NCBI GenBank assembly: GCA_021325385.1
Contig: JAJPHH010000152.1
Coordinates: 1 to 52,386 of the forward strand
Reading direction: 5' to 3'
Length of the DNA: 52,386 nt
Source of the DNA: Alphaproteobacteria bacterium
GTDB lineage: Bacteria > Pseudomonadota > Alphaproteobacteria > Rhizobiales > Beijerinckiaceae
Each line of letters begins with the position of its first letter. Position 1 is the first letter of the stretch. A program made the translations under genes and the position numbers. The notes below the pieces were generated by a model that worked only from the letters and a program-made list of their open reading frames with translations, searched no databases and was not told the DNA's origin. Positions 4,717 to 29,912 of the stretch are shown here, in pieces.

Positions 4717-5589
4717 CTACTTCAGGTTGACCGCGCTGAGCGAGCCCCCGGAGACGTCGTTCGACGAATTGTTGTTTATGGCGTTGTCGCTATAGGTGAA
4801 AGCCGTACCGCCCAGGATTGATACGCCAATGGCGTTGTTCGCCGCCATGGAGCGGGTAAGGTACAGGTTTGAGGCGGCGCCGCTCGTCACAAATCCCACG
4901 TTCGAATTCTCGCTGGCGTTGACTTGATTGGCGAATACCGTCACGGGAGCGCCAGCGCTGACCGCCTGCATCCCGTGATGGTTTGTCGTGGCCGCGACCC
5001 GCGTGACTGTGCCATGGAGCGTTCCGCCGGAGGGGGTCGCGTAGATTCCCGTATAGGCATTGTCGGCGAAGATCGAATCCGAAATGACGAAGCTCACAGG
5101 TCCTGTCGAGGGTTGAATCAGGACCCCGTTGCCGGTCGAGCCGAAGCCTGCGAAATGCCGCACCACGCAGTTGACTATGGTGAGGCTGGCTCCGGAGTTG
5201 AAGACGATCCCATTGGCGCCGGCGCCGAGCCCGTCAATATTGAGCCCGCGCAGATGTACGGCGTCGGAGGGTCCAGCGTTGATCGTAATGGCGGCGCCCG
5301 TACTGGTCTGCACGCCGGCGGCGCCTACGCCGTCGTTGACGATCGAGAGCGCTTTGCTGATCGTGATCGCGCCATAGCCGGCGGGATCGAGCACGTCGAT
5401 TTCGCCGCCTGGCGCGACGATGTTGTCGTGCACGTACTGGAATGTTCGGCACGGAGCGGCGGGCGCGCCGCAGCCGGCGGCGTCGGCTCCATGCCCCGAA
5501 ACCCAAGCGCGGTTGATCAAAGCGTGAGCGGGCGAGCAGAAGGAGAAGACGGCGAGCGTCGCCGCGAGAAGCGAAGCGGTCTTGCGCAT
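4717..5589 (-). CDS. Secreted parallel beta-helix protein, paralog 1 (isolated copy)
   Basis: A 290-residue exported protein, first of eight paralogs in the window. A signal peptide of ~23 residues ends at AHA. The family cap follows (RAWVSGHG, then GCG, PCRTFQYV and GGEIDVLDPAGYG), with two cysteines likely to form a disulfide. Beyond residue ~100 are 20-28-residue turns rich in Asn, Gly and Val, typical of right-handed parallel beta-helices, including the internal cysteine (VNCVVRHF). The C-terminus differs from the array copies (SDNAINNNSSNDV). No catalytic motif, lipobox, membrane anchor or autotransporter barrel is visible. A GGGGGA ribosome site precedes the ATG. It lies about 6.7 kb away from the main array, in the same orientation. 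Function unknown. Confidence 0.8.
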   Translation of the reverse strand: MRKTASLLAATLAVFSFCSPAHALINRAWVSGHGADAAGCGAPAAPCRTFQYVHDNIVAPGGEIDVLDPAGYGAITISKALSIVNDGVGAAGVQTSTGAAITINAGPSDAVHLRGLNIDGLGAGANGIVFNSGASLTIVNCVVRHFAGFGSTGNGVLIQPSTGPVSFVISDSIFADNAYTGIYATPSGGTLHGTVTRVAATTNHHGMQAVSAGAPVTVFANQVNASENSNVGFVTSGAASNLYLTRSMAANNAIGVSILGGTAFTYSDNAINNNSSNDVSGGSLSAVNLK

Positions 5590-12276: not shown

Positions 12277-13218
12277 TCACTGAGGATTGAGCTGCGTCAA
12301 CGCGTTTCCACCGACGGTGAAGATATTGTTGCTGCCGTCGGTGTAGCCGAAACTCGTGTTATTCTGGACGCCGCCGATCGTGTTATGGTCGAACAGCCAA
12401 ATCTCCAACCCGTTGACAATGTCGGTTGACCCGTTCCTCATCACGGTTGAAGCTTTCAAGGTCAGGTAGCCGCTGCTGTTGCTGATGCCGACGCCCTGGT
12501 TCTGACTGATCACGGCGCCGACGATCAGCGGCGCTAGGCAGCATCCGCCGCTGAAATTGACGCCATTCGCATTGCCGGTGACTCGCGTGCGGTAAATCTC
12601 CGGATTGACGTTAAGCTCCAGAGCGGCGATGGCGACGCCAGAGCTCGCATTGTCAAGGATGGAGCTGTCGGCGATCACGACGTTTTGGGTTGGCACGGCG
12701 CCAACGCCAGCAAGCGTCGGCGCAATGCTGACGCCGGCGCCGGCGAAATCTTTGATCAGGCAGTTGAGAATATTGATCACCGCCACGCCGCCTTGATTAG
12801 GCAGGTTTGAAATTACACTGATTCCGTCAGCGCCTGTCCCGCCGCCTTCGATGGTCAGACCGCGCAAGGTGACGTTCGATACAGTCGCGAGATTGATCGT
12901 GATCGCGTTCTGACCGGACGCTGTTTGCTGCACCCCGGCCACGCCGACGCCGTCATTGACGATGCTGACCGCCTTGGTGATCGTCACCGCGCCATAGCCG
13001 GCGGGATCGAGCACGTCGATCTCGCCGCCGGCGGCGATGATGTTGTCGTGCACGTACTGGAAGGTGCGACAGGGCGAGGTCGGCGAGCCGCAGCCGGCCG
13101 CGTCCGTCCCGTGGCCGGAGACCCAGGCGCGTGCGGCGCCTCCGGCCGCCTCGGCCGGAGAAAGCGCGAGCAGAAGCGAGGCGAGCGCAGTCGCTGTAAA
13201 CAAGTTCGTCTTGATCAC
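12277..13218 (-). CDS. Secreted parallel beta-helix protein, paralog 2
   Basis: 313 residues, the last array gene in the direction of transcription. The start is GTG at 13218 with AGGGGG upstream, as in paralog 3; it begins IKTNLFTATALAS and the signal peptide ends near AEAA. The cap is canonical (ARAWVSGHGTDAAGCG, PCRTFQYV, GGEIDVLDPAGYG). The helix part is the most divergent of the family after residue ~105, with an extra cysteine pair (SGGCCLAPL) and a C-terminus lacking the usual YTYGDN-INGNG motif (FGYTDGSNNIFTVGGN instead). This mosaic of constant front and unique back suggests recombination. Confidence 0.8.
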   Translation of the reverse strand: MIKTNLFTATALASLLLALSPAEAAGGAARAWVSGHGTDAAGCGSPTSPCRTFQYVHDNIIAAGGEIDVLDPAGYGAVTITKAVSIVNDGVGVAGVQQTASGQNAITINLATVSNVTLRGLTIEGGGTGADGISVISNLPNQGGVAVINILNCLIKDFAGAGVSIAPTLAGVGAVPTQNVVIADSSILDNASSGVAIAALELNVNPEIYRTRVTGNANGVNFSGGCCLAPLIVGAVISQNQGVGISNSSGYLTLKASTVMRNGSTDIVNGLEIWLFDHNTIGGVQNNTSFGYTDGSNNIFTVGGNALTQLNPQ

Positions 13219-13232
13219 TGGAAGCCCCCTGA

Positions 13233-13267
13233 ACGGCGAGCGGGGCGCTCGCCGTGACAGGATCATA
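13233..13267 (-). promoter_or_regulatory. Leader cassette of paralog 2: -10 box and hairpin
   Basis: On the coding strand TATGAT (13262-13267) is followed by a perfect 10-bp stem with a 3-base loop (13233-13255), then the AGGGGG ribosome site. The same order is found before paralogs 3, 4, 6, 7 and 8. The stem could insulate or gate translation. Confidence 0.6.
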
Positions 13268-13364
13268 CATCAATCAGCGGTCCCGGGCCATTTTCCGCGC
13301 CGCACGCCACAGCGGGCGTAAGGGCGAGCAGCATCGAGGCGAGCGTCGCCGCCGCTCTGGTCAT
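13263..13364 (-). pseudogene. Orphan signal-peptide relic of a lost paralog
   Basis: A 33-codon frame starting MTRAAATLASMLLALTPA closely copies the paralog signal peptide (compare TTLASSLLALTPA in paralog 5) and has its own AAGGACGT ribosome site. After the cleavage region it runs into unrelated sequence and stops inside the -10 box of paralog 2. The whole cap and helix are missing. It is best explained as the front end of a deleted copy. Confidence 0.65.
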
Positions 13365-13471
13365 AGTGACGTCCTTAGCGACTCGACCGACGCGCATCGC
13401 GCTTAAATCGAGAAGCTCCCCGCCCGGGCCGTTAAGCGGCTTGAATCGTCGTCGCCGCGCTGACAATCGGC

Positions 13472-14347
13472 CTACTTGCGGGCGACGCTGGGCGGCGCAG
13501 CCTCATTGCCGCCATTGCCATCGATGTAGTTGTCGCCATAGCTTGCCAAAACGCCGCCAGAAGTCGTCGTCCAGCCAGCCACATTGCCGGTCACTGTTGA
13601 TTGGCCAACGCGAAGCGTTGCGCCCGAACCAAACGCGGAGAGGCCAGTCCCGCCACTGCTGTTGACGGCGGCGGAACGGATCACTGTCATCGTGGCCGAA
13701 GCCCCGGTCGTCGCGCTGAAGAAGCCTACGTTGCTATTGTTGGCGGCGACGCTGTCCAACACCGTCGCCTCGGCCGCGCCAGAGCCCTGCGGATCGATGG
13801 CGATTCCGTCTGCATTGTCGGAGCTTGTCGATTTAGAGACGACAAGTCTGCTCAAATTCGAGCCGGCCGGAGCAAAATCGATGCCGGCCTCGGTGAAATG
13901 CCGAACGACGCAATTCTCGATCGTCAACGAGGCGCCGCCGACAAACTTGACGCCTTCCGCACCAAGGCCCGCCCCCTCGATCGTCAATCCACGCAAGCTG
14001 ATCACATCGTTCGGTCCGCCATTGATGACGACGCCGTAGCCGCCGCTCGAGGCGGCCTGCACCCCGGCTACGCCGACGCCGTCATTAACGATGCTGACCG
14101 CCTTGGTGATCGTCACCGCGCCATAGCCGGCCGGATCGAGCACGTCGATCTCGCCGCCGGCGGCGATAATGTTGTCGTGCACGTACTGGAAGGTCCGGCA
14201 CGGATTGGTCGGCGCGCCGCAGCCGGCGGCGTCCGTTCCATGGCCGGACACCCAGGCGCGAGCTGCGCCTCCGGCCGCCTCGGCCGGCGAAAGCGCGAGC
14301 AGAAGCGAGGCGAGCGCAGTCGCCGTGAACAAATTCATCTTGATCAC
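13472..14347 (-). CDS. Secreted parallel beta-helix protein, paralog 3
   Basis: 291 residues starting at GTG (IKMNLFTATALASLLLALS) with a GAGGGGC ribosome site. Signal peptide and cap are nearly identical to paralog 2, including the variant AGGAARAWVSGHG. The helix part then diverges and the C-terminus is short (ASYGDNYIDGNGGNE). The conserved internal cysteine is present (IENCVVRHF). Paralogs 2 and 3 therefore share one recent front but have different backs. Confidence 0.8.
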   Translation of the reverse strand: MIKMNLFTATALASLLLALSPAEAAGGAARAWVSGHGTDAAGCGAPTNPCRTFQYVHDNIIAAGGEIDVLDPAGYGAVTITKAVSIVNDGVGVAGVQAASSGGYGVVINGGPNDVISLRGLTIEGAGLGAEGVKFVGGASLTIENCVVRHFTEAGIDFAPAGSNLSRLVVSKSTSSDNADGIAIDPQGSGAAEATVLDSVAANNSNVGFFSATTGASATMTVIRSAAVNSSGGTGLSAFGSGATLRVGQSTVTGNVAGWTTTSGGVLASYGDNYIDGNGGNEAAPPSVARK

Positions 14348-14362
14348 TGGAAGCCCCTCTGA

Positions 14363-14397
14363 ACGGCGAGCGGGGCGCTCGCCGTGAGGGGATCATA
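14363..14397 (-). promoter_or_regulatory. Leader cassette of paralog 3: -10 box and hairpin
   Basis: TATGAT (14392-14397, coding strand) is followed by the 10-bp stem ACGGCGAGCG/CGCTCGCCGT (14363-14385). Hairpin and loop are identical to those of paralog 2. Confidence 0.6.
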
Positions 14398-14442
14398 GCA
14401 CTCTTTTCGCGGGCGGCATTTGCGCCGCCGCCTCGGGCCATG

Positions 14443-15402
14443 TCACCGCGGCGAGACGGGGGTGAGGGCGACGGAGACGTCCGTTCCGTTGTCGTTGATG
14501 CGGTTGTCTTCGTAGGTATAGAGAGTATTTGACGGGGTGGCGTTATTGACCCCGTAGACGGAATTCGACGTGATCACCGAGCGACCGAGCCGAACGGTCA
14601 GCGCGCCAGACGCGACAAGGCCATAGGCGTTGTTGTCCATGTGTGAATTGTCGACCGAGGCGACCATCGAGCCGCCGCCGATCAATTGGAAGACCACGCC
14701 GCTAACGGCGTTGTTGCTCGCGGCGCTGTCGGACAGCGAGACCTTCAGAGAACCGTTCCCGAGTCCCAAGGCAATCCCATACTGGTTGTTGACCGCCGTG
14801 ACGTCCTTGATGACGGCCGTGGCGCTCGGCGACCCGCTCGGCGGCACAAAATAGATGCCGACAAAACCGTTGTCCGAGGCGATGACATTCGAAATGAGAA
14901 AATTCGCCGAGCCTGAGGTCGGTTGAATCAGGACGCCGTTCCCCCCCGCCCCCGAGCCGACGAAATGCCGGATCACGCAATTGACTACGGTCAGTCCGCC
15001 GCCGGAATTGAACACGATCCCGTTCGCGCCGGTCCCCAGTCCGTCGATGTTGAGGCCGCGCAACGTGACGAGGTCGCTGGCCCCCGCGTTGATCGTGATC
15101 GCGTTCCCGGACGCCGCCTGCACGCCCGCCGTGCCGACGCCGTCATTGACGATGCTCACCGCCTTGGTGATCGTCACCGCGCCATAGCCGGCCGGATCGA
15201 GCACGTCGATCTCGCCGCCGGCGGCGATGATGTCATCGTGCACATACTGGAAGGTGCGGCAGGGCGAGGTCGGCGCGCCGCAGCCGGCGGCGTCCGTTCC
15301 GTGGCCGGAGACCCAGGCGCGGTTGAGGAGCGCGTGGGCCGGCGAAAGCGCGAGAAGAAGCGAGGCGAGCGTCGTCGCGGCGAGCAAGGGCGTCTTGATC
15401 AT
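14443..15402 (-). CDS. Secreted parallel beta-helix protein, paralog 4
   Basis: 319 residues. ATG start with GGAGGGG upstream. A signal peptide of ~24 residues ends at AHA. The cap is canonical (NRAWVSGHGTDAAGCG). The helix follows the main array pattern: LRGLNIDGLGTGANGIVFN, VNCVIRHF, GVLIQPTSGS, SDNGFVGIYFVPPSG, and a C-terminus with YTYEDNRINDNGTDV. Turns carry Asn ladders but no carbohydrate-active signature. Next upstream is a relic (15509-15734), and a 41-base gap holds its leader. Confidence 0.82.
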   Translation of the reverse strand: MIKTPLLAATTLASLLLALSPAHALLNRAWVSGHGTDAAGCGAPTSPCRTFQYVHDDIIAAGGEIDVLDPAGYGAVTITKAVSIVNDGVGTAGVQAASGNAITINAGASDLVTLRGLNIDGLGTGANGIVFNSGGGLTVVNCVIRHFVGSGAGGNGVLIQPTSGSANFLISNVIASDNGFVGIYFVPPSGSPSATAVIKDVTAVNNQYGIALGLGNGSLKVSLSDSAASNNAVSGVVFQLIGGGSMVASVDNSHMDNNAYGLVASGALTVRLGRSVITSNSVYGVNNATPSNTLYTYEDNRINDNGTDVSVALTPVSPR

Positions 15403-15420
15403 CGGAAAGTCCCCTCCGAA

Positions 15421-15477
15421 GGCGAGCGGAAGCGTTCGCCGTAACGGGGATCATAGAACATTCCGCCAGACCGGAAT
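15421..15477 (-). promoter_or_regulatory. Promoter, inverted repeat and hairpin leader of paralog 4
   Basis: Reading along the coding strand: ATTCC-N8-GGAAT (15460-15477), four bases, TATGAT (15450-15455), then the hairpin GGCGAACG/CGCTCGCC (15421-15440, one mismatch) and the ribosome site. The left arm of the inverted repeat falls at the -35 position. The same layout occurs before paralog 7. Confidence 0.55.
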
Positions 15478-15508
15478 ATTGCGCGTCTCGTCGTTGCCGG
15501 CGGGCGCG

Positions 15509-15734
15509 TCACTGCGGCTTGTCAGCCGTGACGCGCCCGAGACGTCGGTTCCGTTCCGCAGATAGTTGTCGCCATAGGTGAAGAGGGGCGTGAGTGGTGG
15601 AGGTCGAGACTCAGATCCACGCGACGACAGATCGACTAAAGCAGAACAAGGGCGGGACCTGCGCGCCAAGGCCAATAAAGGCGGGTTGTCGGTCACCGTC
15701 GAATTGTCGATCGGTACGGCTAACGCGCAATCAT
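15509..15734 (-). pseudogene. C-terminal relic of a lost beta-helix paralog
   Basis: The coding strand reads ALAVPIDNSTVTDNPPLLA (compare RLTASIDRSTMSGNQLG in paralog 5), then an unrelated Arg/Ser/Pro stretch, then FTYGDNYLRNGTDVSGA and, in another frame, TADKPQ-stop, the usual paralog tail. An internal deletion plus at least one frameshift has destroyed it. No start, signal peptide or cap remains. Confidence 0.7.
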
Positions 15735-15748
15735 CGGAGTCGCCCCTG

Positions 15749-16699
15749 TCATTGCGGCTTGTAGGTCGTATTCAAGGCGCCGGCGACATCCGTCCCGTTC
15801 CCGTTGATGCGATTGTCGCCATAGGTGTAGATCGTGCTTGACGACGTATTGTCAGAAACCCCGTACGTGTTGGATGTGATAACGGAGCGTCCGAGCAGAA
15901 GGGTTGCCGTCCCCCCGGCATAGATGCCTAATTGATTGCCGCTCATCGTCGAGCGATCGATCGAAGCGGTAAGCCGGGCGGCGGCATTTAGAACATAAAT
16001 CCCATAGCCGTCATTGACCGCAATGTCGTTGGACAAAGCGAGGGTCATCGCGCCGCCGCTGGCGTAAGCGGTATGGATGAAGAGTCCAGCGGACGTGTCG
16101 TTGGCCGCTGTGACGCGATCGATCACTCCCGTGACGCTCGGCGCGCCGCTCGGCGTGAAGAACTCGACGCCGTAATTCCCGTTGTCCGAGGCGATAACTT
16201 TCGAAATGAAGCCGTTTACCGAGCCGGAAGTCGGCTGGATGCTGACGCCGGCGACGGTGAAATGCCGGGCGACGCAATCGACGACCGTCAGGCCGGCGCC
16301 AGAATTGAACAATATCCCGTACGATCCCGTCCCAAGCCCGTCGATGGTGACGCCGCGCAGGGTCACGACGTCGTTGGGCCCGGCGTTGATGGTGATCGCG
16401 TTGCCGGACGCCGCCTGCACCCCGGCCGCGCCGACGCCGTCATTAACGATGCTCAGCGCCTTGGTGATCGTCACCGCCCCGTAGCCGGCCGGATCGAGCA
16501 CGTCGATCTCGCCGCCGGCGGCGATGACGTTGTCGTGCACGTACTGAAAACTGCGGCAGGGCGAGGTCGGCGCGCCGCAGCCCGCCTGGTCGACGCCATG
16601 GCCGGAGACCCAGGCGCGGCTCTGCAGCGCGTGAGCGGGCGTGAGGGCGAGGAGCGACGAGGCGAGCGTCGTCGCCGCAAGCAAAGACGTCTTGGTCAT
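15749..16699 (-). CDS. Secreted parallel beta-helix protein, paralog 5
   Basis: 316 residues with a signal peptide ending at AHA. The cap has small changes (SGHGVDQAGCG, PCRSFQYVHDNVIAAGG). The helix includes LRGVTIDGLGTGSYGILFN, VDCVARHF and the conserved tail YTYGDNRINGNGTDVAG. The start is 10 bases after the stop of paralog 6, with the GAGGAGG ribosome site close to that stop, and no promoter or hairpin in between. It is therefore read as the second gene of a 6-5 operon, unlike every other copy. Confidence 0.82.
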   Translation of the reverse strand: MTKTSLLAATTLASSLLALTPAHALQSRAWVSGHGVDQAGCGAPTSPCRSFQYVHDNVIAAGGEIDVLDPAGYGAVTITKALSIVNDGVGAAGVQAASGNAITINAGPNDVVTLRGVTIDGLGTGSYGILFNSGAGLTVVDCVARHFTVAGVSIQPTSGSVNGFISKVIASDNGNYGVEFFTPSGAPSVTGVIDRVTAANDTSAGLFIHTAYASGGAMTLALSNDIAVNDGYGIYVLNAAARLTASIDRSTMSGNQLGIYAGGTATLLLGRSVITSNTYGVSDNTSSSTIYTYGDNRINGNGTDVAGALNTTYKPQ

Positions 16700-16709
16700 C
16701 GAAGCCTCC

Positions 16710-17681
16710 TCATCGCTGCGCGTAGGTTGTGTTCAAGGCGTTCGGAATGTCCGTCCCGTTGCCGTTGATGCGGTTGTCGCCATAGGTGTAGAGCGTATTG
16801 GGGTAGGTGTTGTTGACGACGCCGTCCTGCGAATTGGATGTAATTACGGAGCGCCCGAGCAGAACGGTCGCCGTGCCGCCGGCATAGACGCCAATAAGGT
16901 TGTTGCTGAAGGTCGAACGATCGATAGAAGCGCTGAGCGGGGCGGCGGCGCTTTTCAGCAAGACGCCATTCTGAGCGGAGGTCGCGATGCTGTCGGACAT
17001 CGCGACGGAGACCGCGCCGCCGGTGGCGTTCGACGAGTCGACGAAGACGTCAACGGCGCTGTTGTTGAGCGCAGTTAGGCCGTCGATCGCGGCCGTGACG
17101 TTTGGCGCGCCGCTGGGCGACAGAAGATAGACGCCGGAATGACCGTTGTCGGAGACGGTCACGTTGGAAATGAGCAGGGTTGTCGAGCCCGACGTCGGCT
17201 GGATCAAGACGCCGTTGCCGCTCGCGCCGGAGCCGGCGAAATGCCGGATGGCGCAGTCGGTCACGGTGAGGCCGCCGCCGGAATTGAAGACAATCCCGTT
17301 CGCGCCGGTTCCGAGTCCGTCAATGTTCAGTCCGCGCAGCGTCACGACGTCGTTGGCGCCGGCGTTGATGGTGATGGCGTCGCCCGACGTGGCCTGCACG
17401 CCGGCCGTGCCGACGCCGTCATTGACGATGCTGAGCGCCTTGCTGATCGTCACCGCGCCGTAGCCGGCAGGATCGAGAATGTCGATCTCGCCGCCGGCGG
17501 CGACGATGTTGTCATGCACGTACTGGAACGAGCGGCAAGGGTTGGTCGGCGCGCCGCAGCCGGCGGCGTCCGCCCCGTGGCCGGAGACCCAAGCTCGGTT
17601 GGCGCCACCCGCCTGAGCGGCCGACAAGACGAGCCAAGACGACGCGAACGCCGTCGCGGCGACTAAAATTCTCTTCATCAT
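16710..17681 (-). CDS. Secreted parallel beta-helix protein, paralog 6
   Basis: 323 residues. Two ATG codons in a row open the gene (MMKRILVAATAFASS), with GAGGGG upstream. The signal peptide is the most divergent of the array and ends near AQAGG. The cap shares PTNPCRSFQYV with its neighbours. The helix carries IDGLGTGANGIVFN, TDCAIRHF, SDNGHSGVYLLSPSG and the tail YTYGDNRINGNGTDI. The helix from TATVLLGRSVITSN onward is close to paralogs 5 and 7, so this portion has been shared by duplication or conversion. First gene of the two-gene unit with paralog 5. Confidence 0.82.
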   Translation of the reverse strand: MMKRILVAATAFASSWLVLSAAQAGGANRAWVSGHGADAAGCGAPTNPCRSFQYVHDNIVAAGGEIDILDPAGYGAVTISKALSIVNDGVGTAGVQATSGDAITINAGANDVVTLRGLNIDGLGTGANGIVFNSGGGLTVTDCAIRHFAGSGASGNGVLIQPTSGSTTLLISNVTVSDNGHSGVYLLSPSGAPNVTAAIDGLTALNNSAVDVFVDSSNATGGAVSVAMSDSIATSAQNGVLLKSAAAPLSASIDRSTFSNNLIGVYAGGTATVLLGRSVITSNSQDGVVNNTYPNTLYTYGDNRINGNGTDIPNALNTTYAQR

Positions 17682-17695
17682 CTGGAGACCCCTCG

Positions 17696-17752
17696 GGCGA
17701 GCGCTTTACGCTCGCCGCGAAGGCGCATACATCATTCCAGCTCGCGCGAAAT
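17696..17752 (-). promoter_or_regulatory. Leader cassette of the paralog 6-5 operon
   Basis: A perfect 8-bp stem GGCGAGCG/CGCTCGCC with a 5-base loop (17696-17716) lies before the ribosome site. Upstream on the coding strand is TATGCG (17724-17729) and GGAAT (17734-17738) at the same spacing as in paralogs 4 and 7; the distal arm is degenerate. Confidence 0.45.
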
Positions 17753-18005
17753 CAGCGATCTTTTCGAAAAGTCCTTCGGAGCGAAGCCGAAAGCGCGACG
17801 CTGCAGGCAGCTCGCCGGCTTGCGCGAGCAAGGTCCATCCGTGTTCCGGGCGATGACGTCGCAACGTACGGAAATTGTCGCCGAGCCGGTCGGCTTGGCT
17901 TCGGCCGGAGGCCCTTTTTTCGCGGAGAAAACCTTGACGGTCGAGCCGCGCGGCGGGCGGCGTCCCGGCAAACAGAAAAAACGCCTTGGAATCGAAAGTC
18001 CTTGG

Positions 18006-18091
18006 TCATTGCGGCTTGTCGGCCGTGTGCGGCGGCCAGGCTCCTGGAAACATCCGTTCCCGTTGATGCGGTTGCCGCCATAGGTATAGCC
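18006..18091 (-). pseudogene. C-terminal relic of a beta-helix paralog
   Basis: The coding strand reads GYTYGGNRINGNG, then, after a frameshift, HTADKPQ-stop, matching the tail of paralogs 7 and 8. Only about 28 codons survive. It abuts an N-terminal relic that lies on the opposite strand. Confidence 0.7.
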
Positions 18092-18102
18092 GCCCGCGCC
18101 GG

Positions 18103-18219
18103 GTCGCCGGTCATGGCGCGGACGTCGCCGGCTGCAACGCGGTCACCAATCTGCGCCGCCTTCAATACGTGGACGACAACATCGTCGCCGCCCGTCCCGG
18201 CGAGCAAGATGTCTTGATC
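18103..18219 (+). pseudogene. Inverted N-terminal cap relic of a beta-helix paralog
   Basis: The plus strand encodes VAGHGADVAGCNAVTNL, then LQYVDDNIVAARPGEQDVLI, clearly derived from the family cap (SGHGADAAGCGAPTN, FQYVHDNIVAAGGEIDVLD). It is the only family fragment on the plus strand. There is no signal peptide or start. Its tail-to-head contact with the minus-strand relic at 18006-18091 records an inversion within a lost copy. Confidence 0.65.
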
Positions 18220-18237
18220 GCAGAGCCCTTCGGACCG

Positions 18238-19212
18238 TCATTGCGGTTTGTCGACGGTGTTGAGGGGGCTTGAAACGTCGGTCCCGTTGCCGTTGATGCG
18301 GTTATCGCCGTAGGTATAGAGCGAACTGGGAGAGGTGTTGTTAAGGACCCCATATTGGGCGTTTGATACGATAACCGATCGGCCGAGCAGAACAGTCGGA
18401 TCCCCGTCGCCAACCTCAAGGCCGATTCCGGTATTGCCAGTCATGCTCGAATTGTCGATTGAAACGATATAGGCGGCCGAACTGGCTCCGATAGCAACTC
18501 CGGAGGCGTTATTGCTCATGATGCTGTTGGACAAGGCTATGCTGGCCGAGCCGGCGCCGATGGCTTGGAGCAACACGCCGTACCCGTTGTTAAATGCCTT
18601 GAGATGATCGATTGCGCCCGTTGCGTTCGCGGCCGCGCTCTGCGGCTGAAAAGAAACGCCCGCAAAGCCGTTGTCCGAGGCGATCACGTTTGAAATGTTG
18701 AAGGTCATCGGACCGGATGTCGTCCGGATCATGAGACCGTTGCCGCTGCTGCCGAGGGCGCTATTGTTGAAGAAATGTCGGATGACGCAATCGACGACAG
18801 TCAGGCTGCCGCCGGCGTCGAACTCGATCCCGTTCGCGCCGGTTCCGAGCCCGTCGATATTGAGGCCGCGCAAGGTGACGTTGTCGCTCGCGCCGGCATT
18901 GATGGTGATCGCGTTCCCCGACGTAGCCTGTACGCCGGCCGTGCCGACGCCGTCATTGACGATGCTGAGCGCCTTGGTGATCGTCACCGCGCCATAGCCG
19001 GCCGGGTCGAGCACGTCGATCTCGCCGCCCGCGGCGATGACGTTGGAGACGACATATTGCAGCGTGCGGCACGGGCTGGCCGGCGCGCCGCAGCCGGCGG
19101 CGTCCGTCCCATGGCCGGAGACCCAGGCTCGGTTCAGCAGCGCGTGGGCGGGCGTAAGGGCGAGCAGAAGCGAGGCGAGCGAAGTCGCCGCAAGCAAAGG
19201 CGCCTTGATCAT
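18238..19212 (-). CDS. Secreted parallel beta-helix protein, paralog 7
   Basis: 324 residues. The ATG at 19212 is set by homology and by the upstream GGAGGGG; a longer frame enters the leader hairpin. The signal peptide ends at AHA. The cap deviates slightly (PCRTLQYVVSNVIAAGG). The helix has IDGLGTGANGIEFD, VDCVIRHF, a small insertion FNNSALGSSGNG, then SNSIMSNNASGVAIGAS and the tail YTYGDNRINGNGTDV. No enzyme signature is seen. Confidence 0.82.
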   Translation of the reverse strand: MIKAPLLAATSLASLLLALTPAHALLNRAWVSGHGTDAAGCGAPASPCRTLQYVVSNVIAAGGEIDVLDPAGYGAVTITKALSIVNDGVGTAGVQATSGNAITINAGASDNVTLRGLNIDGLGTGANGIEFDAGGSLTVVDCVIRHFFNNSALGSSGNGLMIRTTSGPMTFNISNVIASDNGFAGVSFQPQSAAANATGAIDHLKAFNNGYGVLLQAIGAGSASIALSNSIMSNNASGVAIGASSAAYIVSIDNSSMTGNTGIGLEVGDGDPTVLLGRSVIVSNAQYGVLNNTSPSSLYTYGDNRINGNGTDVSSPLNTVDKPQ

Positions 19213-19227
19213 CGGCAATCCCCTCCA

Positions 19228-19285
19228 ACGGCGAGCGCGCGCTCGCCGTGAAGCGGGATTATAGGACATTCCGGCAGGCTGGAAT
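19228..19285 (-). promoter_or_regulatory. Promoter, inverted repeat and palindromic leader of paralog 7
   Basis: The coding strand carries ATTCC-N8-GGAAT (19268-19285), four bases, a consensus TATAAT (19258-19263) and a perfect 22-base palindrome (19228-19249) before the ribosome site. This is the cleanest example of the array leader. Confidence 0.6.
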
Positions 19286-19317
19286 ATAGGTTCGCTCTCG
19301 AGCGCGCGGGGCCGCCG

Positions 19318-20316
19318 TCACTGCGGCTTGTCGGCCGTGTTCAAGGCGCCGGAGACATCCGTCCCGTTCCCGTTGATGCGGTTGTCGCCATAAGTGTAGA
19401 CCGCGCCGCCGCTGTTGATGATCCCGTCGCCCGCATTTGAGGCGATGACGGAGCGGCCGAGCCAAACGGTCGCCGGGGTCACCACGACAAGTCCGTTATA
19501 GTTGCCGCTCGCGCTCGTCTTGTCGATCGACACTTTCGCGCTTCCCCGTACGACAATCCCGTCCTGAGCGCTTTGGGCGTCGCCGAACGGGTTGAGGTTG
19601 TTGTCGTTGGCCACGCTGTTGGAGACGGCGATCGTCGCCGGACCGTTGAAATTGACGTAGACGCCTTTCAGGTTATCGACCGCCGTGACGCGATCGATCA
19701 CGCCCGTGACGGTCGGCGTCTGAGAGCTGCTGGGCGTGTAAACGGCTATGCCGGCGAATTGGTTGTTCGAGGCGGTAACGTTCGACAGAAGAAAAGTCAT
19801 CGTTCCCGACGTCGGCCGGATAAGCACGCCGCTGCCGAACACGACGGTGTCGCCAGTGAAATTCCGGATGACGCAGTCGACGACCGTCAAGCCGCCGCCG
19901 GAATTGAAGACGATCCCATTGCTGCTGGTTGTTCCGTTCCCCGAGCCCTCGATGTCGAGGCCGCGCAAAGTTACGACATCGTTCGGACCTGCATTGATCG
20001 TGATCGCGTTCCCCTGGGGGACCGGCGCCTGCACGCCGGCCGTCCCGACGCCGTCATTGACGATGCTCAGCGCCTTGCTGATCGTCACGGCGCCGTACCC
20101 TGCGGGATCGAGCACGTCGATCTCGCCGCCGGCGGCAATGATGTTGTCATGCACGTACTGGAAGGTGCGGCAGGGCGAGGCCGGCGCGCCGCAGCCGGCG
20201 GCGTCCGTACCATGGCCGGACACCCAGGCGCGGTTCAGGCTGGCCGCCTGACCAGGCGAGAGCGCGAGCGAAAGCAAGGCGAGCGTCGTCGCCGCAAGCA
20301 GAGATGTCTTGGTCAT
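19318..20316 (-). CDS. Secreted parallel beta-helix protein, paralog 8
   Basis: 332 residues, the longest copy and the first of the array in the direction of transcription. The signal peptide ends near GQAA. The cap is canonical (NRAWVSGHGTDAAGCG). Compared with the others it has small insertions: APVPQGN after the cap, and GSGNGTTSSNG in place of GLGTGANG. The internal cysteine (VDCVIRNF) and the tail YTYGDNRINGNGTDVSG are kept. A Gly/Pro-poor, Asn-rich helix follows the family pattern. Its leader has its own -10 box. Confidence 0.82.
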   Translation of the reverse strand: MTKTSLLAATTLALLSLALSPGQAASLNRAWVSGHGTDAAGCGAPASPCRTFQYVHDNIIAAGGEIDVLDPAGYGAVTISKALSIVNDGVGTAGVQAPVPQGNAITINAGPNDVVTLRGLDIEGSGNGTTSSNGIVFNSGGGLTVVDCVIRNFTGDTVVFGSGVLIRPTSGTMTFLLSNVTASNNQFAGIAVYTPSSSQTPTVTGVIDRVTAVDNLKGVYVNFNGPATIAVSNSVANDNNLNPFGDAQSAQDGIVVRGSAKVSIDKTSASGNYNGLVVVTPATVWLGRSVIASNAGDGIINSGGAVYTYGDNRINGNGTDVSGALNTADKPQ

Positions 20317-20331
20317 TGGCCCCCTCGAACA

Positions 20332-20363
20332 CCGAGCCGGGCGCTCGGCGCGGGGGGATTATA
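20332..20363 (-). promoter_or_regulatory. Leader cassette of paralog 8
   Basis: A consensus TATAAT (20358-20363, coding strand) precedes a 6-bp stem CCGAGC/GCTCGG with a 5-base loop (20332-20348). The ATTCC-N8-GGAAT repeat is not conserved here. Confidence 0.5.
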
Positions 20364-20864
20364 GTCAGGAAATTTTACGCTCTGCTATATCGCCCGCGCT
20401 CCGCCGCGACCGGCAATGTTCACAGCGCCGTGAAGCGACGCTCGACGACCAATGCCGGCCGCGAATCGTTCGGCGCCTTGAACCCTGTGGCGCGCACCGT
20501 GCTCGCTCGCGTGTCATCGAATTGCGACACGGGGCCGACGCCGTCTCCGTATCGCGCTCGGCGGCGCGCCGCGGACAGTCGCCCGCATCAAGCGGCGCCG
20601 TAGAGGGGCCGGACGCCAAGTTGCGCCTCGCCGCGGCGACCCGTCGCGGCCTTTCTGCAGAGCCGGATTCGTCATGTGCGTCCTAAGGTGAATTATGCGT
20701 AGCAAAACCGTAAATAGTCGCCTTGCTCGCAAGACGATCATCGCCCCTAGCGGCGGCGCGGGCTAGCGCGGCGTCGCGGATTTGTCGCACAATGCCGATA
20801 ACAGCGGCTCAGGGCTGTTTTTTCGGGCGCCGGGCCCATTTCATTTTGGTCGAGGAGGCATTGC
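20364..20864. other. Intergenic region between the array and ppk
   Basis: About 500 bases with no convincing gene. It is the right boundary of the array. The ppk ribosome site GAGGAGG lies at its end (20852-20858). No direct-repeat scar, tRNA or integrase is visible. Confidence 0.5.
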
Positions 20865-26455: not shown

Positions 26456-26603
26456 TGCGCCCGGATTGCCAGTATGATGCGCTGCCGCGCCTGATACAGA
26501 CGAGGCAAGTATTTTTCGGATCGCGGGCGCGCTTGCCGGCGGAGCGTCATTTTCGAAGAGGCGGCGGCGAGCGCCATTGAACCTGGCTGGAAGGGAGTGC
26601 GTC

Positions 26604-29600
26604 GTGACCACGATCGCGGACTTCCTGAAATCGATCGGCATGGCCGAATACGCGGCTGGCTTGTCCGAAAGCGGGATCGAAGTTTCCGATCTTCCAAGCC
26701 TGACCGAAAAGGATCTGGAGCGGCTAGGCGTTGCGCCCGGGCATCGCAATGCGCTGCTGCGCGCAATCGCCGAATCTCGCTCATATGCGGAACAAGCGCC
26801 GCCGGCAGGCAAGGACCAGGTCCGCGGCGTCGAGCGGCGGCATCTGACCATTCTATTCTGCGATCTCGTCGGGTCGACGGCGATGTCTACGCGGCTCGAT
26901 CCTGAAGAACTCCACGAAATCATGGACGCGTATCGCAAATGTTGCGTGCGCGTCATCGAACAGGCGGGAGGCTTCGTCGCGAAGTATCTGGGCGACGGCG
27001 TGCTTGCCTATTTCGGCTACCCGCAGGCGAGCGAGGATGACGCCGAGCGTGCGGTTAACGCCGGGCTGGCGCTGATCGAAAGCGTTGGGCAGCTTCGGGA
27101 CGACGCTGGAGCGGCGCTGCAAGCGCGGGTCGGTGTCGCGAGCGGCCTCGTTCTCATCGGCGATCTCATAGTAGCGGGCGCCGCGCACGACCACGATGTG
27201 GTGGGCGAAACGCCCAATCTCGCCGCCCGGCTCCAAGCTCGAGCCGAGCCTAACACGGTCGTCATCAGTAGCGAGACGCGACGGCTCGTCGGCGAGCTTT
27301 TCGAATACGCGCCCCTCGATGCCAAACCTCTCAAGGGCTTCGCGACGCCGATCGAATCCTGGCAGGTGATCAAGCCAAGCGACATAGCAAGTCGCTTCAG
27401 AGCGCTGCGCGCGTCGAACACCATGCTCATCGGTCGAGAGCAAGAGACCGACCGGATGGTCAGGGCCTGGGACAGCGCCAAAGCGGGACAAGGATGCGTC
27501 CTACTGATCTCGGGCGAGCCCGGCATTGGCAAATCGCGCATGGTCGAGGCGCTGCTGAACTGGCTTAAGGATGAACCGCACGTTCGGCTGCGGTTCTTTT
27601 GTGCGCCGAACCGGCAGGGCAGCGCGTTCTATCCCGTCATCCGGCAGATCCAGCGAGCGGCCAAAATCAAACGCGACGACCCGAACGAGCAACGGCTGGA
27701 CAAGCTGGAGGCGACGCTCCGGCGCGGAGCCAGCGATCTGAGCGAAGCCGCGCCGCTGATTGCCGAGCTCTTGTCGATTCCCGCCGACGGTCGCTATCCA
27801 ACCCTCGATCTCCCGCCCCTGAAGCGTCGCGACAGGACGCTTCAGGCGCTTATGGCGCAGTTGGAAGGACTTGCGCGGCAGCCTACGCTGATGGTGTTTG
27901 AAGATGTTCATTGGATCGATCCTTCGTCACTCGAATTGTTGAATCTCGTCGTCGACCGCGCGCCCAAGCTTCCGCTCCTTCTGGTCGTCACGTTCCGCCC
28001 AGAATTTGTCGCTCCATGGCTTGGCAGGGCGCACGTCTCTGAAATTCGCCTCGACCGACTGTCGAGGGAGCTAAGCGCGGAAATCATTGCGAACTTGACG
28101 CGCGACAGAGAATTATCCCGAGGAATGGTCGATCAGATCGTCGAGCGGACGGACGGCGTTCCGCTCTTTATCGAGGAGTTGACGAAGGTTCTCATCGAAC
28201 AGGGCGGCGATACGCCGGCGCGCGAGATACCCGTGACCCTGCGGGACATGCTGACTGCGAGACTGGACCGCTTGGGACAAGCAAAGGAAGTTGCACAGAT
28301 CGCTTCGGTCCTCGGAAGCGAGTTTTCGGCTCGGTTGCTGTCGGACGTCATGGAGATCGAGGATGATCGACTGAATTCCGAATTGACAAAGCTTGTCGAG
28401 GCCGAGTTCCTATTCGAGCAGACCGCGCCTTCGGCCAGCTATCGCTTCAAGCATGCGCTCATACAAGAGGCGGCCTATCAATCTCTGGTGCGGAGCAAGC
28501 GCCAGCGCCATCATCTCAAGGCCGCGCAGACCCTCAAGGAGCGATTTCCGGAAATCGCTGAGGCCCAGCCGGAACTCCTCGCCCACCATTTCACCAACGC
28601 CGCTTCTCAAGAAATCGCAATTCCCTTCTGGCGGGCCGCGGCCGACAAGGCGATGCGGAGGTCGGCCAATATCGAAGCGATAGCCCATTTGACGAAGGCT
28701 CAAGAGCTGCTCAAGGCGTTGCCGGAGAATCCAGAGCGCATCCAGCAAGAGCTGGCGATTCTCATAACGTTAGGAATCCCCCTGATTGCCACCAAGGGCT
28801 TCGCTTCTCCGGAAGTAGGAAAGGTTTACGCGCGCGCTCGCGCGATATGCGAAGCTGTCGGCGAGGCGCCGCAACTCTTTCCCGTCCTCTGGGGGCTTTG
28901 GGTCTTCTACACAGCACGCGCCGAGCACCAGGCTGCGCGGGAATTGGCGGCGCAATGTCGACGCATCGCGGAGGTCGCGGGCGAATCCAGCCTGCGCTTG
29001 CTGGCGCATCACGCGATGGGCGTCACCCTGTCGTCTCTCGGACAGCATGCGTCGGCCCTTCACGAACTGGATCAGGCGGTCAATCTTTACGACCGTGAGA
29101 AACACGCGTCCTTGGCCTACGTCTATGGACAGGACTCTGGCGTCGTCTGCCGTTCTCAGGCCGCTTTTTGTCTCTGGTTCCTTGGGTTTCCTGAGCAGGC
29201 GCTAAAAAGGAACGAGGAAGCTTTGGCTTTGGCGCGAGAATTGTCGCATCCTTATAGCCTGGCCGCCGCGCTTGATTTCTCGGCCTGGATCCATCAGCTC
29301 GTCCAGGATCGGAATGTCGTGGAAAGGGACGCAAGCGCCGCTATCGCCATCTCCTCCGAGCGCGAGTTTGTGTTTTGGCTGCTCACCGGAATGATCTTGC
29401 GAGGCTGGGCATTGAGCGCCGCCGGCAACGTCGATGAAGGCGTGAAACAAATGCGACAGGGCCTAGCCGGCTATCAATCCACGGGCGCAGGCATCATGCG
29501 GCCGTACTATCTTGCGCTTATGGCGCGCGTGCTTGCGGCCACGGGGCAGGGAGACGAGGCCTGCCGGCTGTTGGACGAAGCAGAAGCGGCGGTTTGCAAT

Positions 29601-29912
29601 ACGGGCGAAGCTTGGTACGAGGCGGAAATCTGTAGGCTGAAGGGCGAGATAACTCTTCAGGGCTCCGCTCGATCAGTAGATCCTGAGCGACTGAAGATCG
29701 CTGGGGACTATTTTGAAAAGGCCCTTCTGATTGCAGGCCAGCAGGGCGCCAAGTCGCTCGAGCTGCGGATCGCCACGAGCTTCAGCCGACTTTGGGGCAG
29801 TGGAGGCAAGAGTCTTGAAGCAAAGCGGCAGCTCGCGAAAGTGTACGAGGGATTTGTCGAAGGGTTCGAGCTTCCTGACCTGCAAGACGCTCGCGCGGCG
29901 CTTACGACGTAA
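26604..29912 (+). CDS. SAM-domain / class III adenylate cyclase / AAA ATPase / TPR protein
   Basis: About 1102 residues. Domains in order: a sterile alpha motif (~1-65, IADFLKSIGMAEYAAGL); a class III cyclase domain (~75-265) with both metal Asp (FCDLVGSTAMS, KYLGDGVLAYFG), and the transition-state Asn/Arg (GETPNLAARLQ); an AAA/STAND ATPase (~285-640) with Walker A GEPGIGKSRM and Walker B LMVFEDVHWID; then a long TPR-like helical C-terminus. Lys in KYLGD and Asp in HDVVGE favour ATP over GTP, so cAMP is the expected product. I chose GTG 26604 because GGAAGGGAG precedes it; a TTG nine codons upstream is the alternative. This is a large signal-integrating protein; the input is unknown. Confidence 0.88.
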   Translation: MTTIADFLKSIGMAEYAAGLSESGIEVSDLPSLTEKDLERLGVAPGHRNALLRAIAESRSYAEQAPPAGKDQVRGVERRHLTILFCDLVGSTAMSTRLDPEELHEIMDAYRKCCVRVIEQAGGFVAKYLGDGVLAYFGYPQASEDDAERAVNAGLALIESVGQLRDDAGAALQARVGVASGLVLIGDLIVAGAAHDHDVVGETPNLAARLQARAEPNTVVISSETRRLVGELFEYAPLDAKPLKGFATPIESWQVIKPSDIASRFRALRASNTMLIGREQETDRMVRAWDSAKAGQGCVLLISGEPGIGKSRMVEALLNWLKDEPHVRLRFFCAPNRQGSAFYPVIRQIQRAAKIKRDDPNEQRLDKLEATLRRGASDLSEAAPLIAELLSIPADGRYPTLDLPPLKRRDRTLQALMAQLEGLARQPTLMVFEDVHWIDPSSLELLNLVVDRAPKLPLLLVVTFRPEFVAPWLGRAHVSEIRLDRLSRELSAEIIANLTRDRELSRGMVDQIVERTDGVPLFIEELTKVLIEQGGDTPAREIPVTLRDMLTARLDRLGQAKEVAQIASVLGSEFSARLLSDVMEIEDDRLNSELTKLVEAEFLFEQTAPSASYRFKHALIQEAAYQSLVRSKRQRHHLKAAQTLKERFPEIAEAQPELLAHHFTNAASQEIAIPFWRAAADKAMRRSANIEAIAHLTKAQELLKALPENPERIQQELAILITLGIPLIATKGFASPEVGKVYARARAICEAVGEAPQLFPVLWGLWVFYTARAEHQAARELAAQCRRIAEVAGESSLRLLAHHAMGVTLSSLGQHASALHELDQAVNLYDREKHASLAYVYGQDSGVVCRSQAAFCLWFLGFPEQALKRNEEALALARELSHPYSLAAALDFSAWIHQLVQDRNVVERDASAAIAISSEREFVFWLLTGMILRGWALSAAGNVDEGVKQMRQGLAGYQSTGAGIMRPYYLALMARVLAATGQGDEACRLLDEAEAAVCNTGEAWYEAEICRLKGEITLQGSARSVDPERLKIAGDYFEKALLIAGQQGAKSLELRIATSFSRLWGSGGKSLEAKRQLAKVYEGFVEGFELPDLQDARAALTT

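What the first reader, a model, noticed from the sequence alone, without database searches (positions are those of the whole stretch)
12277..20316. Head-to-tail array of seven secreted beta-helix paralogs (plus one at 4717-5589)
Seven co-oriented genes of 291-332 residues share an almost constant signal peptide and ~75-residue cap (WVSGHG, GCG, PCR, GGEIDVLDPAGYG) and then diverge through Asn/Gly-rich helix coils, joining again at a YTYGDN-INGNG tail in most copies. No catalytic motif or anchor is seen. A constant front with variable middles suggests a surface or secreted protein repertoire built by duplication and recombination. The family resembles widespread right-handed beta-helix proteins; its role here is unknown.
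Basis: partly seen in the sequence, partly recalled or inferred. Interest (0 to 1): 0.85.

Follow-up and report, generated by a model that had tools for sequence, protein, structure and literature searches.

The report
Large T2SS-linked secreted beta-helix family
The seven look-alike genes are one block of a family of about fifty probably secreted, rod-shaped proteins in one bacterium, apparently carried out of the cell by the type II secretion machine and varied by gene duplication and swapping of their front ends; what the proteins bind is not known.

Summary
The array is real: seven minus-strand genes at 12277-20316 plus one at 4717-5589, right-handed beta-helix proteins with a constant front and divergent coils. 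It is one block of a larger set: 49 family ORFs in 25 clusters of this genome. Nine of ten congeners show none; the tenth (inferred Methylocapsa sp. S129) has 15 matches elsewhere, and its ppk junction, where this array sits, is empty. Some neighbouring copies share 95-96% of front bases but 44-45% of coil bases, so the constant front is partly recombination, not only selection. Pieces of dead copies lie between the genes. The main new result is a link to type II secretion (T2SS): GspG is in 21 of 23 family-bearing genomes against 61 of 275 others, and in two taxonomic families a member sits just upstream of the Sel1-prepilin peptidase-gspD/gspE-M locus. I read the proteins as T2SS-exported, non-catalytic beta-solenoids, probably binding or matrix proteins. 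Export is inferred and the ligand unknown. Against: physical linkage is in only 4 of 32 carriers with GspG, and a 30-copy expansion in another genus (G071) has no constant front.

The parts
4717..5589 (-). family gene, single, 290 aa
   Evidence: no family hit at the matching place in G010
12277..13266 (-). array gene 1; start probably GTG at 13218
   Evidence: structure model
13472..14347 (-). array gene 2, GTG start, 291 aa
14443..15402 (-). array gene 3, 319 aa
   Evidence: structure model
15749..16699 (-). array gene 4, 316 aa; 10 bases after gene 5
16710..17681 (-). array gene 5, 323 aa
18238..19269 (-). array gene 6; start probably ATG at 19212
19318..20316 (-). array gene 7, 332 aa
13299..13355 (-). 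piece of a dead copy (signal peptide)
   Evidence: blastn 79-89% over 41-57 bases
15509..15584 (-). piece of a dead copy (tail)
   Evidence: blastn 78% over 83 columns to the 19318 gene
18006..18101 (-). piece of a dead copy (tail)
   Evidence: blastn 77% over 102 columns to the 19318 gene
18094..18212 (+). piece of a dead copy (cap), inverted relative to the array
   Evidence: blastn up to 82% over 99 bases; tblastn 41-64% over 39-59 aa
13218..13275 (-). leader with hairpin before the ribosome-binding site
14348..14405 (-). leader with hairpin
15404..15463 (-). leader with hairpin
17682..17737 (-). leader with hairpin
19213..19271 (-). leader with hairpin
20317..20371 (-). leader with hairpin

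Best explanation
The array is one block of a roughly fifty-gene family of secreted right-handed beta-helix proteins. Shown: the fold by prediction, the copy number, the lineage-specific place of this block, pieces of dead copies, and disagreement between front and coil histories. Inferred: the proteins cross the inner membrane by the Sec route, fold in the periplasm with a disulfide in the cap (Cys41-Cys48), and leave as folded rods through the T2SS. A member of the widespread, probably ancestral type sits beside the T2SS locus, and copies spread by duplication. The conserved front (about residues 26-125) is the N-cap and first coils, needed for folding and perhaps for T2SS recognition, and is partly homogenised between copies by gene conversion. 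The coils carry no conserved catalytic residue and most likely give binding surfaces for polysaccharide, cell wall or matrix.
For: 49 ORFs in 25 clusters. Structure models with pLDDT 95.2 and 89.3; Asn ladder at 178, 206, 231, 258, 280, 300 in 65-100% of 48 paralogs; cap Cys pair invariant in 70 aligned relatives. GspG in 21 of 23 family-bearing against 61 of 275 other genomes of the taxonomic family, own genome counted (Fisher 3e-11); by genus 8 of 9 carriers against 21 of 43 overall (hypergeometric 0.008). In the order sample 13 of 15 against 53 of 382 (Fisher 2e-9). Microsynteny: a member upstream of and in line with a Sel1-type gene, then prepilin peptidase, gspD, gspE-M, in own genome, G010, G611 and G437. 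Recombination: 22 of 1128 own pairs and 22 of 55 G010 pairs have fewer synonymous changes in front than in coils after Bonferroni; C77_8450 is 95-97% like C77_7508 over codons 26-75 and 39-52% after codon 125, where it is 60-72% like C77_3975. T2SS carries a folded pectate lyase by a composite loop signal (PMC7949064, abstract and opening lines seen).
Against: No secretion or binding data. By the matches listed, a member lies within 15 kb of GspG in 4 of 32 family-bearing genomes with GspG (2 of 21 in the taxonomic family, 2 of 11 others in the order), plus the MAG G686; hit lists were capped. Twelve other fetched T2SS loci held no member, two of them (G683, G111) of the same gene order. No GspG was found in 2 of 23 carriers (G068, G105) and 2 of 15 in the order sample (G434, G597). 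Fisher values ignore kinship and the two samples overlap. G071 (30 copies used) has no constant front: cap pN 0.28, coils 0.28, tail 0.21, 0 of 435 pairs significant; yet its front and back nearest neighbours differ in 25 of 30, so the 41 of 48 here is weak evidence by itself. Only the direction front less than back was tested. Saturation and misalignment in the coils can inflate the contrast.
Confidence: 0.6

Rival explanations
1. They are polysaccharide-active enzymes (lyase, epimerase or glycosidase) diversified for different glycans.
For: The best solved fold neighbours include AlgE4 and AlgE6 epimerase modules, GH136 lacto-N-biosidase and pectate lyase Pel9A.
Against: Matches are weak (best E 1e-4, TM to query about 0.3-0.6, identity 9-17% in the rows listed). 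In 48 paralogs no Asp, Glu, His, Lys or Arg after residue 126 exceeds 71% conservation (Arg145, Asp299); only the ladder Asn300 is invariant. A site in the cap, or different sites in different copies, is not excluded.
Confidence: 0.15
2. The expansion is neutral or selfish gene duplication with little function for most copies; coils diverge because they are hardly constrained.
For: Coil pN/pS 0.76 in the array and near saturation, dead pieces in the array, a split copy in C202, patchy presence: 23 of 298 genomes.
Against: 48 of 49 collected ORFs are intact and keep the Cys motif and Asn ladder; cap pN/pS is 0.26 in the array.
Confidence: 0.15
3. The constant front is kept by purifying selection alone; no exchange between copies.
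For: Cap residues are conserved across phyla, and cap pN/pS is low.
Against: Synonymous divergence is also low in the front of certain pairs (pS 0.12-0.15 front, 0.65-0.71 coils), and three-way chimaeras exist.
Confidence: 0.1

Closest known systems
Right-handed beta-helix proteins, Pfam PF13229
   Same: Match in 7 of 8, Asn ladder, predicted fold
   Different: PF13229 is a broad fold model. The family's Cys-bearing cap lies outside the best Pfam stretches, which begin at residue 96 or later, and no NCBIfam model passes its cut-off
T2SS-exported pectate lyases such as Pel3 (PMC7949064, abstract and opening lines seen)
   Same: Signal-peptide-like start, folded beta-rich protein, genome with a T2SS
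   Different: Those are enzymes in small sets; here no conserved catalytic residue in the coils, about fifty paralogs, and export untested
Candida glabrata Awp1-related beta-helix wall proteins (PMC8746771, abstract and outline seen)
   Same: A large set (42) of beta-helix proteins resembling pectate lyases; the two studied, Awp1-A and Awp3b-A, bound no carbohydrate
   Different: Eukaryotic cell-wall proteins with an added beta-sandwich; no relation by sequence was tested here
Chlamydia polymorphic membrane proteins (recalled, no call)
   Same: Paralogous beta-helix surface proteins in one bacterium
   Different: Autotransporters with a C-terminal barrel; none of the window proteins matches such a domain

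Membership tests
Right-handed beta-helix (PF13229) | Pfam score over gathering cut-off | tested here: met
   7 of 8 window proteins; the 12277 protein has no match
Right-handed beta-helix (PF13229) | predicted fold and Asn ladder | tested here: met
   two of eight window proteins modelled
T2SS substrate | N-terminal Sec signal peptide | tested here: inconclusive
   Read by eye: basic residue, hydrophobic stretch, A-x-A end; no signal-peptide program was run
T2SS substrate | a T2SS in the genome | tested here: met
   GspG; secretin, T2SSE, T2SSF and prepilin peptidase on C146
T2SS substrate | genomic association with T2SS | tested here: met
   21 of 23 against 61 of 275 and 13 of 15 against 53 of 382; linkage in 4 of 32 carriers with GspG
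T2SS substrate | export lost in a gsp mutant | not testable with these tools
   needs an experiment
Autotransporter (T5SS, Pmp type) | C-terminal outer-membrane barrel | tested here: not met
   no such Pfam domain at E up to 1 in eight proteins; models end in the helix
Alginate epimerase or polysaccharide lyase | conserved catalytic residues on the helix | tested here: not met
   no charged residue or His above 71% after residue 126 in 48 paralogs; known active sites were not superposed
IPTL-CTERM sorted proteins | C-terminal IPTL-CTERM motif | tested here: not met
   none in the eight at E up to 1; present over cut-off in family genes of L059 and L067, just under it in L065

The most novel reading that the evidence does not exclude
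A modular T2SS-exported repertoire: the cap is a portable folding and secretion module copied between genes by gene conversion, while the coils behind it diverge into many binding surfaces. It would be a secreted, non-catalytic counterpart of variable surface-protein families, with its founding gene beside the secretion locus.
Probability: 0.3. Interest if true: 0.78.

Novelty: new variant of a known kind. Interest (0 to 1): 0.6.

Why it matters
How a T2SS recruits its cargo is open (PMC7949064 calls the mechanisms elusive in its abstract). About fifty natural cargo candidates with a shared front and very unlike coils, in a genome with one GspG gene, would let that be tested by comparison. It would also give a lead to the function of a family found in Bradyrhizobium, Acidovorax, Myxococcus and Acidobacteria records and known to Pfam only as a beta-helix. 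Searches of the held open-licence papers for Methylocapsa with beta-helix, with right-handed parallel beta-helix and with type II secretion returned no paper; nothing wider is claimed.

Tried and rejected
Leader hairpin as a family-wide element: rejected. Folding z of 48 leaders averaged -0.88 against -0.46 in 46 control leaders, Mann-Whitney p 0.096. A hairpin with compensatory changes holds in ten leaders that I chose; the model found those ten in the genome and one more match at E 0.70 (150 of 18243 candidates scored), and only matches at E 0.46-0.65 in ten G010 and G071 loci.

Shared flanks with the G010 arrays: no window gene outside the family matched them. Sequence search of solved structures gave three hits at E 0.05-0.11, taken as chance. 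Rfam gave nothing in the window at gathering scores. Suf genes beside a family gene in L062 look like coincidence. A second structural aligner was not available. The 12277 model was not sent to a fold search.

Rows dropped: the split copy C202_27469 was left out of alignments, trees and leader counts (48 of 49 used). The structure alignments used 70 and 50 chosen sequences. One search used 11 G010 rows of 15 matches and 30 G071 rows of 34, short ones left out. The tree is of the quick kind, with 12 G010, 6 G027 and 12 chosen outside rows. Only 7 and 5 candidates per genome were scored; fuller counts exist for eight genomes and for own.
Full report
What is there. Seven minus-strand genes lie at 12277-20316 and an eighth at 4717-5589. 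Each has a signal-peptide-like start (read by eye), a nearly constant front and divergent coils. Seven of eight pass Pfam's Beta_helix cut-off; no NCBIfam model passes its cut-off. AlphaFold on the 14443 protein with 70 aligned sequences gives pLDDT 95.2 and pTM 0.90, short strands throughout with a helix in the cap. The 12277 protein, which Pfam misses, gives 89.3. Asn is conserved about once per coil at 178, 206, 231, 258, 280 and 300 (65-100% of 48 paralogs), the usual beta-helix ladder. Two cap Cys are invariant in 70 aligned sequences. Fold neighbours in the PDB are alginate epimerase modules, a phage tail fibre, lacto-N-biosidase and Pel9A, all weak; viral beta-helix proteins match about as weakly.

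How many. A profile search of the window's genome gives 56 matches. I collected 49 ORFs covering at least 220 model positions: 48 near full length and one that lacks its front, which lies in another frame beside it. They form 25 clusters on 23 contigs; the largest hold eight, seven (this array), five and three genes. Some copies lie near contig ends (C26, C68), so the number may be low. One copy, C77_13141, is 980 aa with a bacterial Ig domain and more sequence behind it.

Relatives. With the eight-row profile at E 1e-10, 5 of 60 genomes match, own included: own, G010, G017, G027 and G045. Of ten congeners only G010 matches. G010 is inferred to be Methylocapsa sp. S129 from equal contig lengths. 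With a wider profile 23 of 298 genomes of the taxonomic family match, own included. Fuller counts for eight: G071 34, G010 15, G261 11, G201 10, G121 9, G175 9, G027 8, G305 3, fragments included. Presence is patchy and large expansions arose more than once. In a quick tree own and G010 copies form several separate groups; a widespread type (WVSGVGDDANPC) joins own C146_44219 with a G010 and a G027 copy (SH-aLRT 95).

The array is an insertion. The window runs from an AAA/Hda-like gene through the array to ppk and ppx. In G010 ppk and that gene lie about 255 bases apart by alignment ends, and no family hit lies where 4717 is here. In G001, G002, G003, G005 and G009 ppk lies beside purN with no family hit. 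In G004 the 3.7 kb beside ppk up to the contig end match no window gene; G006, G007 and G008 were not fetched.

Front and coils. In the array of seven, cap pS and pN are 0.34 and 0.09, coils 0.56 and 0.43. Coil synonymous sites are close to saturation, so the ratio 0.76 is not evidence of positive selection. After Bonferroni, 22 of 1128 own pairs and 22 of 55 G010 pairs have fewer synonymous changes in front than in coils. Nearest paralogs by front and by coils differ in 41 of 48, but also in 25 of 30 in G071, so that count alone proves little. The clearest chimaeras come from pairwise re-alignment: C77_8450 is 95-97% identical to its neighbour C77_7508 over codons 26-75 and 39-52% after codon 125, where it is 60-72% identical to C77_3975; C202_18883 is 89-92% like C202_19808 over codons 26-75 and 88% like C202_17955 over codons 101-150. 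This fits gene conversion or unequal exchange of the front. Against generality: 30 copies in G071 show no constant front (0 of 435 pairs; cap pN 0.28, coils 0.28, tail 0.21). The opposite direction was not tested.

Dead pieces. With the eight genes masked, four pieces of family sequence appear at three places inside the array: an inverted cap at 18094-18212 beside a tail at 18006-18101, a tail at 15509-15584, and a signal peptide at 13299-13355.

Link to type II secretion. GspG (PF08334) is on contig C146, 7.7 kb from family gene C146_44219. In the taxonomic family GspG is in 82 of 298 genomes: 21 of 23 with the beta-helix family and 61 of 275 without (Fisher 3e-11). By genus: 8 of 9 carriers against 21 of 43 overall (0.008). 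In 397 genomes of the order: 13 of 15 against 53 of 382 (Fisher 2e-9). Genomes are not independent, and both samples hold own and G027. Among 22 genomes behind the named loci, 19 have a GspG-like hit, some of them weak; this set has no control and overlaps the others.

Microsynteny. In own C146 the order is family gene, sulfotransferase, Sel1, prepilin peptidase, gspD, then gspE, F, G and on to M (Pfam for D, E, F, the peptidase, Sel1 and sulfotransferase, the rest by PF08334 or by tblastn to G010's K, L and M). In G010 the array ends beside the Sel1-like gene of the same locus, with a broken last copy, and another copy follows the far end. In G611 and G437, one genus of another family, a single listed copy lies directly upstream of the Sel1-like gene in the same order. 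In G686, a Xanthobacteraceae MAG, the family gene of L057 and the T2SS genes of L153 lie on one contig of 15,536 bases. Twelve other fetched T2SS loci (L149-L152, L154-L161) had no member in the stretch; L151 (G683) and L158 (G111) have the same Sel1-peptidase-gspD/gspE order. Counting by coordinates, a listed member lies within 15 kb of GspG in 4 of 32 carriers that have GspG.

Mechanism. Most likely: Sec export, folding and disulfide in the periplasm, T2SS export as a rod, binding outside. T2SS carries folded pectate lyases by a composite signal (PMC7949064, abstract and opening lines seen). In Betaproteobacteria some family genes end in an IPTL-CTERM motif, and in Myxococcus one carries Ig domains, which points to the cell surface. 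No charged residue is conserved in the coils as an enzyme would need. A similar design, 42 Awp1-related beta-helix wall proteins, exists in Candida glabrata, where the two studied bound no carbohydrate (PMC8746771, abstract seen): a caution for the binding idea.

Literature. Ten answered searches listed no title about this family; listings were partial. Passages of PMC4070871 and PMC2275737 were seen: the first reports T2SS genes in two Bradyrhizobium strains, judged unable to secrete for want of gspC, and beta-helix autotransporters; the second reports no T2SS in Rhizobium leguminosarum and a beta-helix protein in its supernatant assigned to another route (PrsDE).

Noticed in passing
window 13218-13275, 14348-14405, 15404-15463, 17682-17737, 19213-19271, 20317-20371 and leaders of four other copies: A leader hairpin before the ribosome-binding site keeps pairing through changes on both sides (11 such cells against 2.7 in shuffles). 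The model found only these ten leaders above noise in the genome.
   Followed up: partly
L069:13141-16083: Family copy of 980 aa with a bacterial Ig domain (PF17957) and a long further part.
   Followed up: partly
L059:3779-4996, L067:3800-5044, L065:3788-5170: In Curvibacter, Acidovorax and Paracidovorax records a second family gene follows the first and ends in an IPTL-CTERM motif; the L065 match is just under the cut-off.
   Followed up: partly
L107-L130 (G071): An expansion of about 30 full copies with no constant front; the tail is the least divergent part.
   Followed up: partly
L138:9203-10036: A sulfotransferase-family gene lies between the T2SS-linked family copy and the Sel1 gene.
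   Followed up: no
L068, C202:27469-28432: A family copy split over two frames, probably broken.
   Followed up: no
window 26577-29912: A 1111 aa protein with SAM, guanylate/adenylate cyclase, AAA and TPR domains.
   Followed up: no
L062:74-2217: SufB- and SufC-like genes beside a family gene in a Thermoanaerobaculia MAG; probably coincidence with the Suf genes of the window.
   Followed up: no
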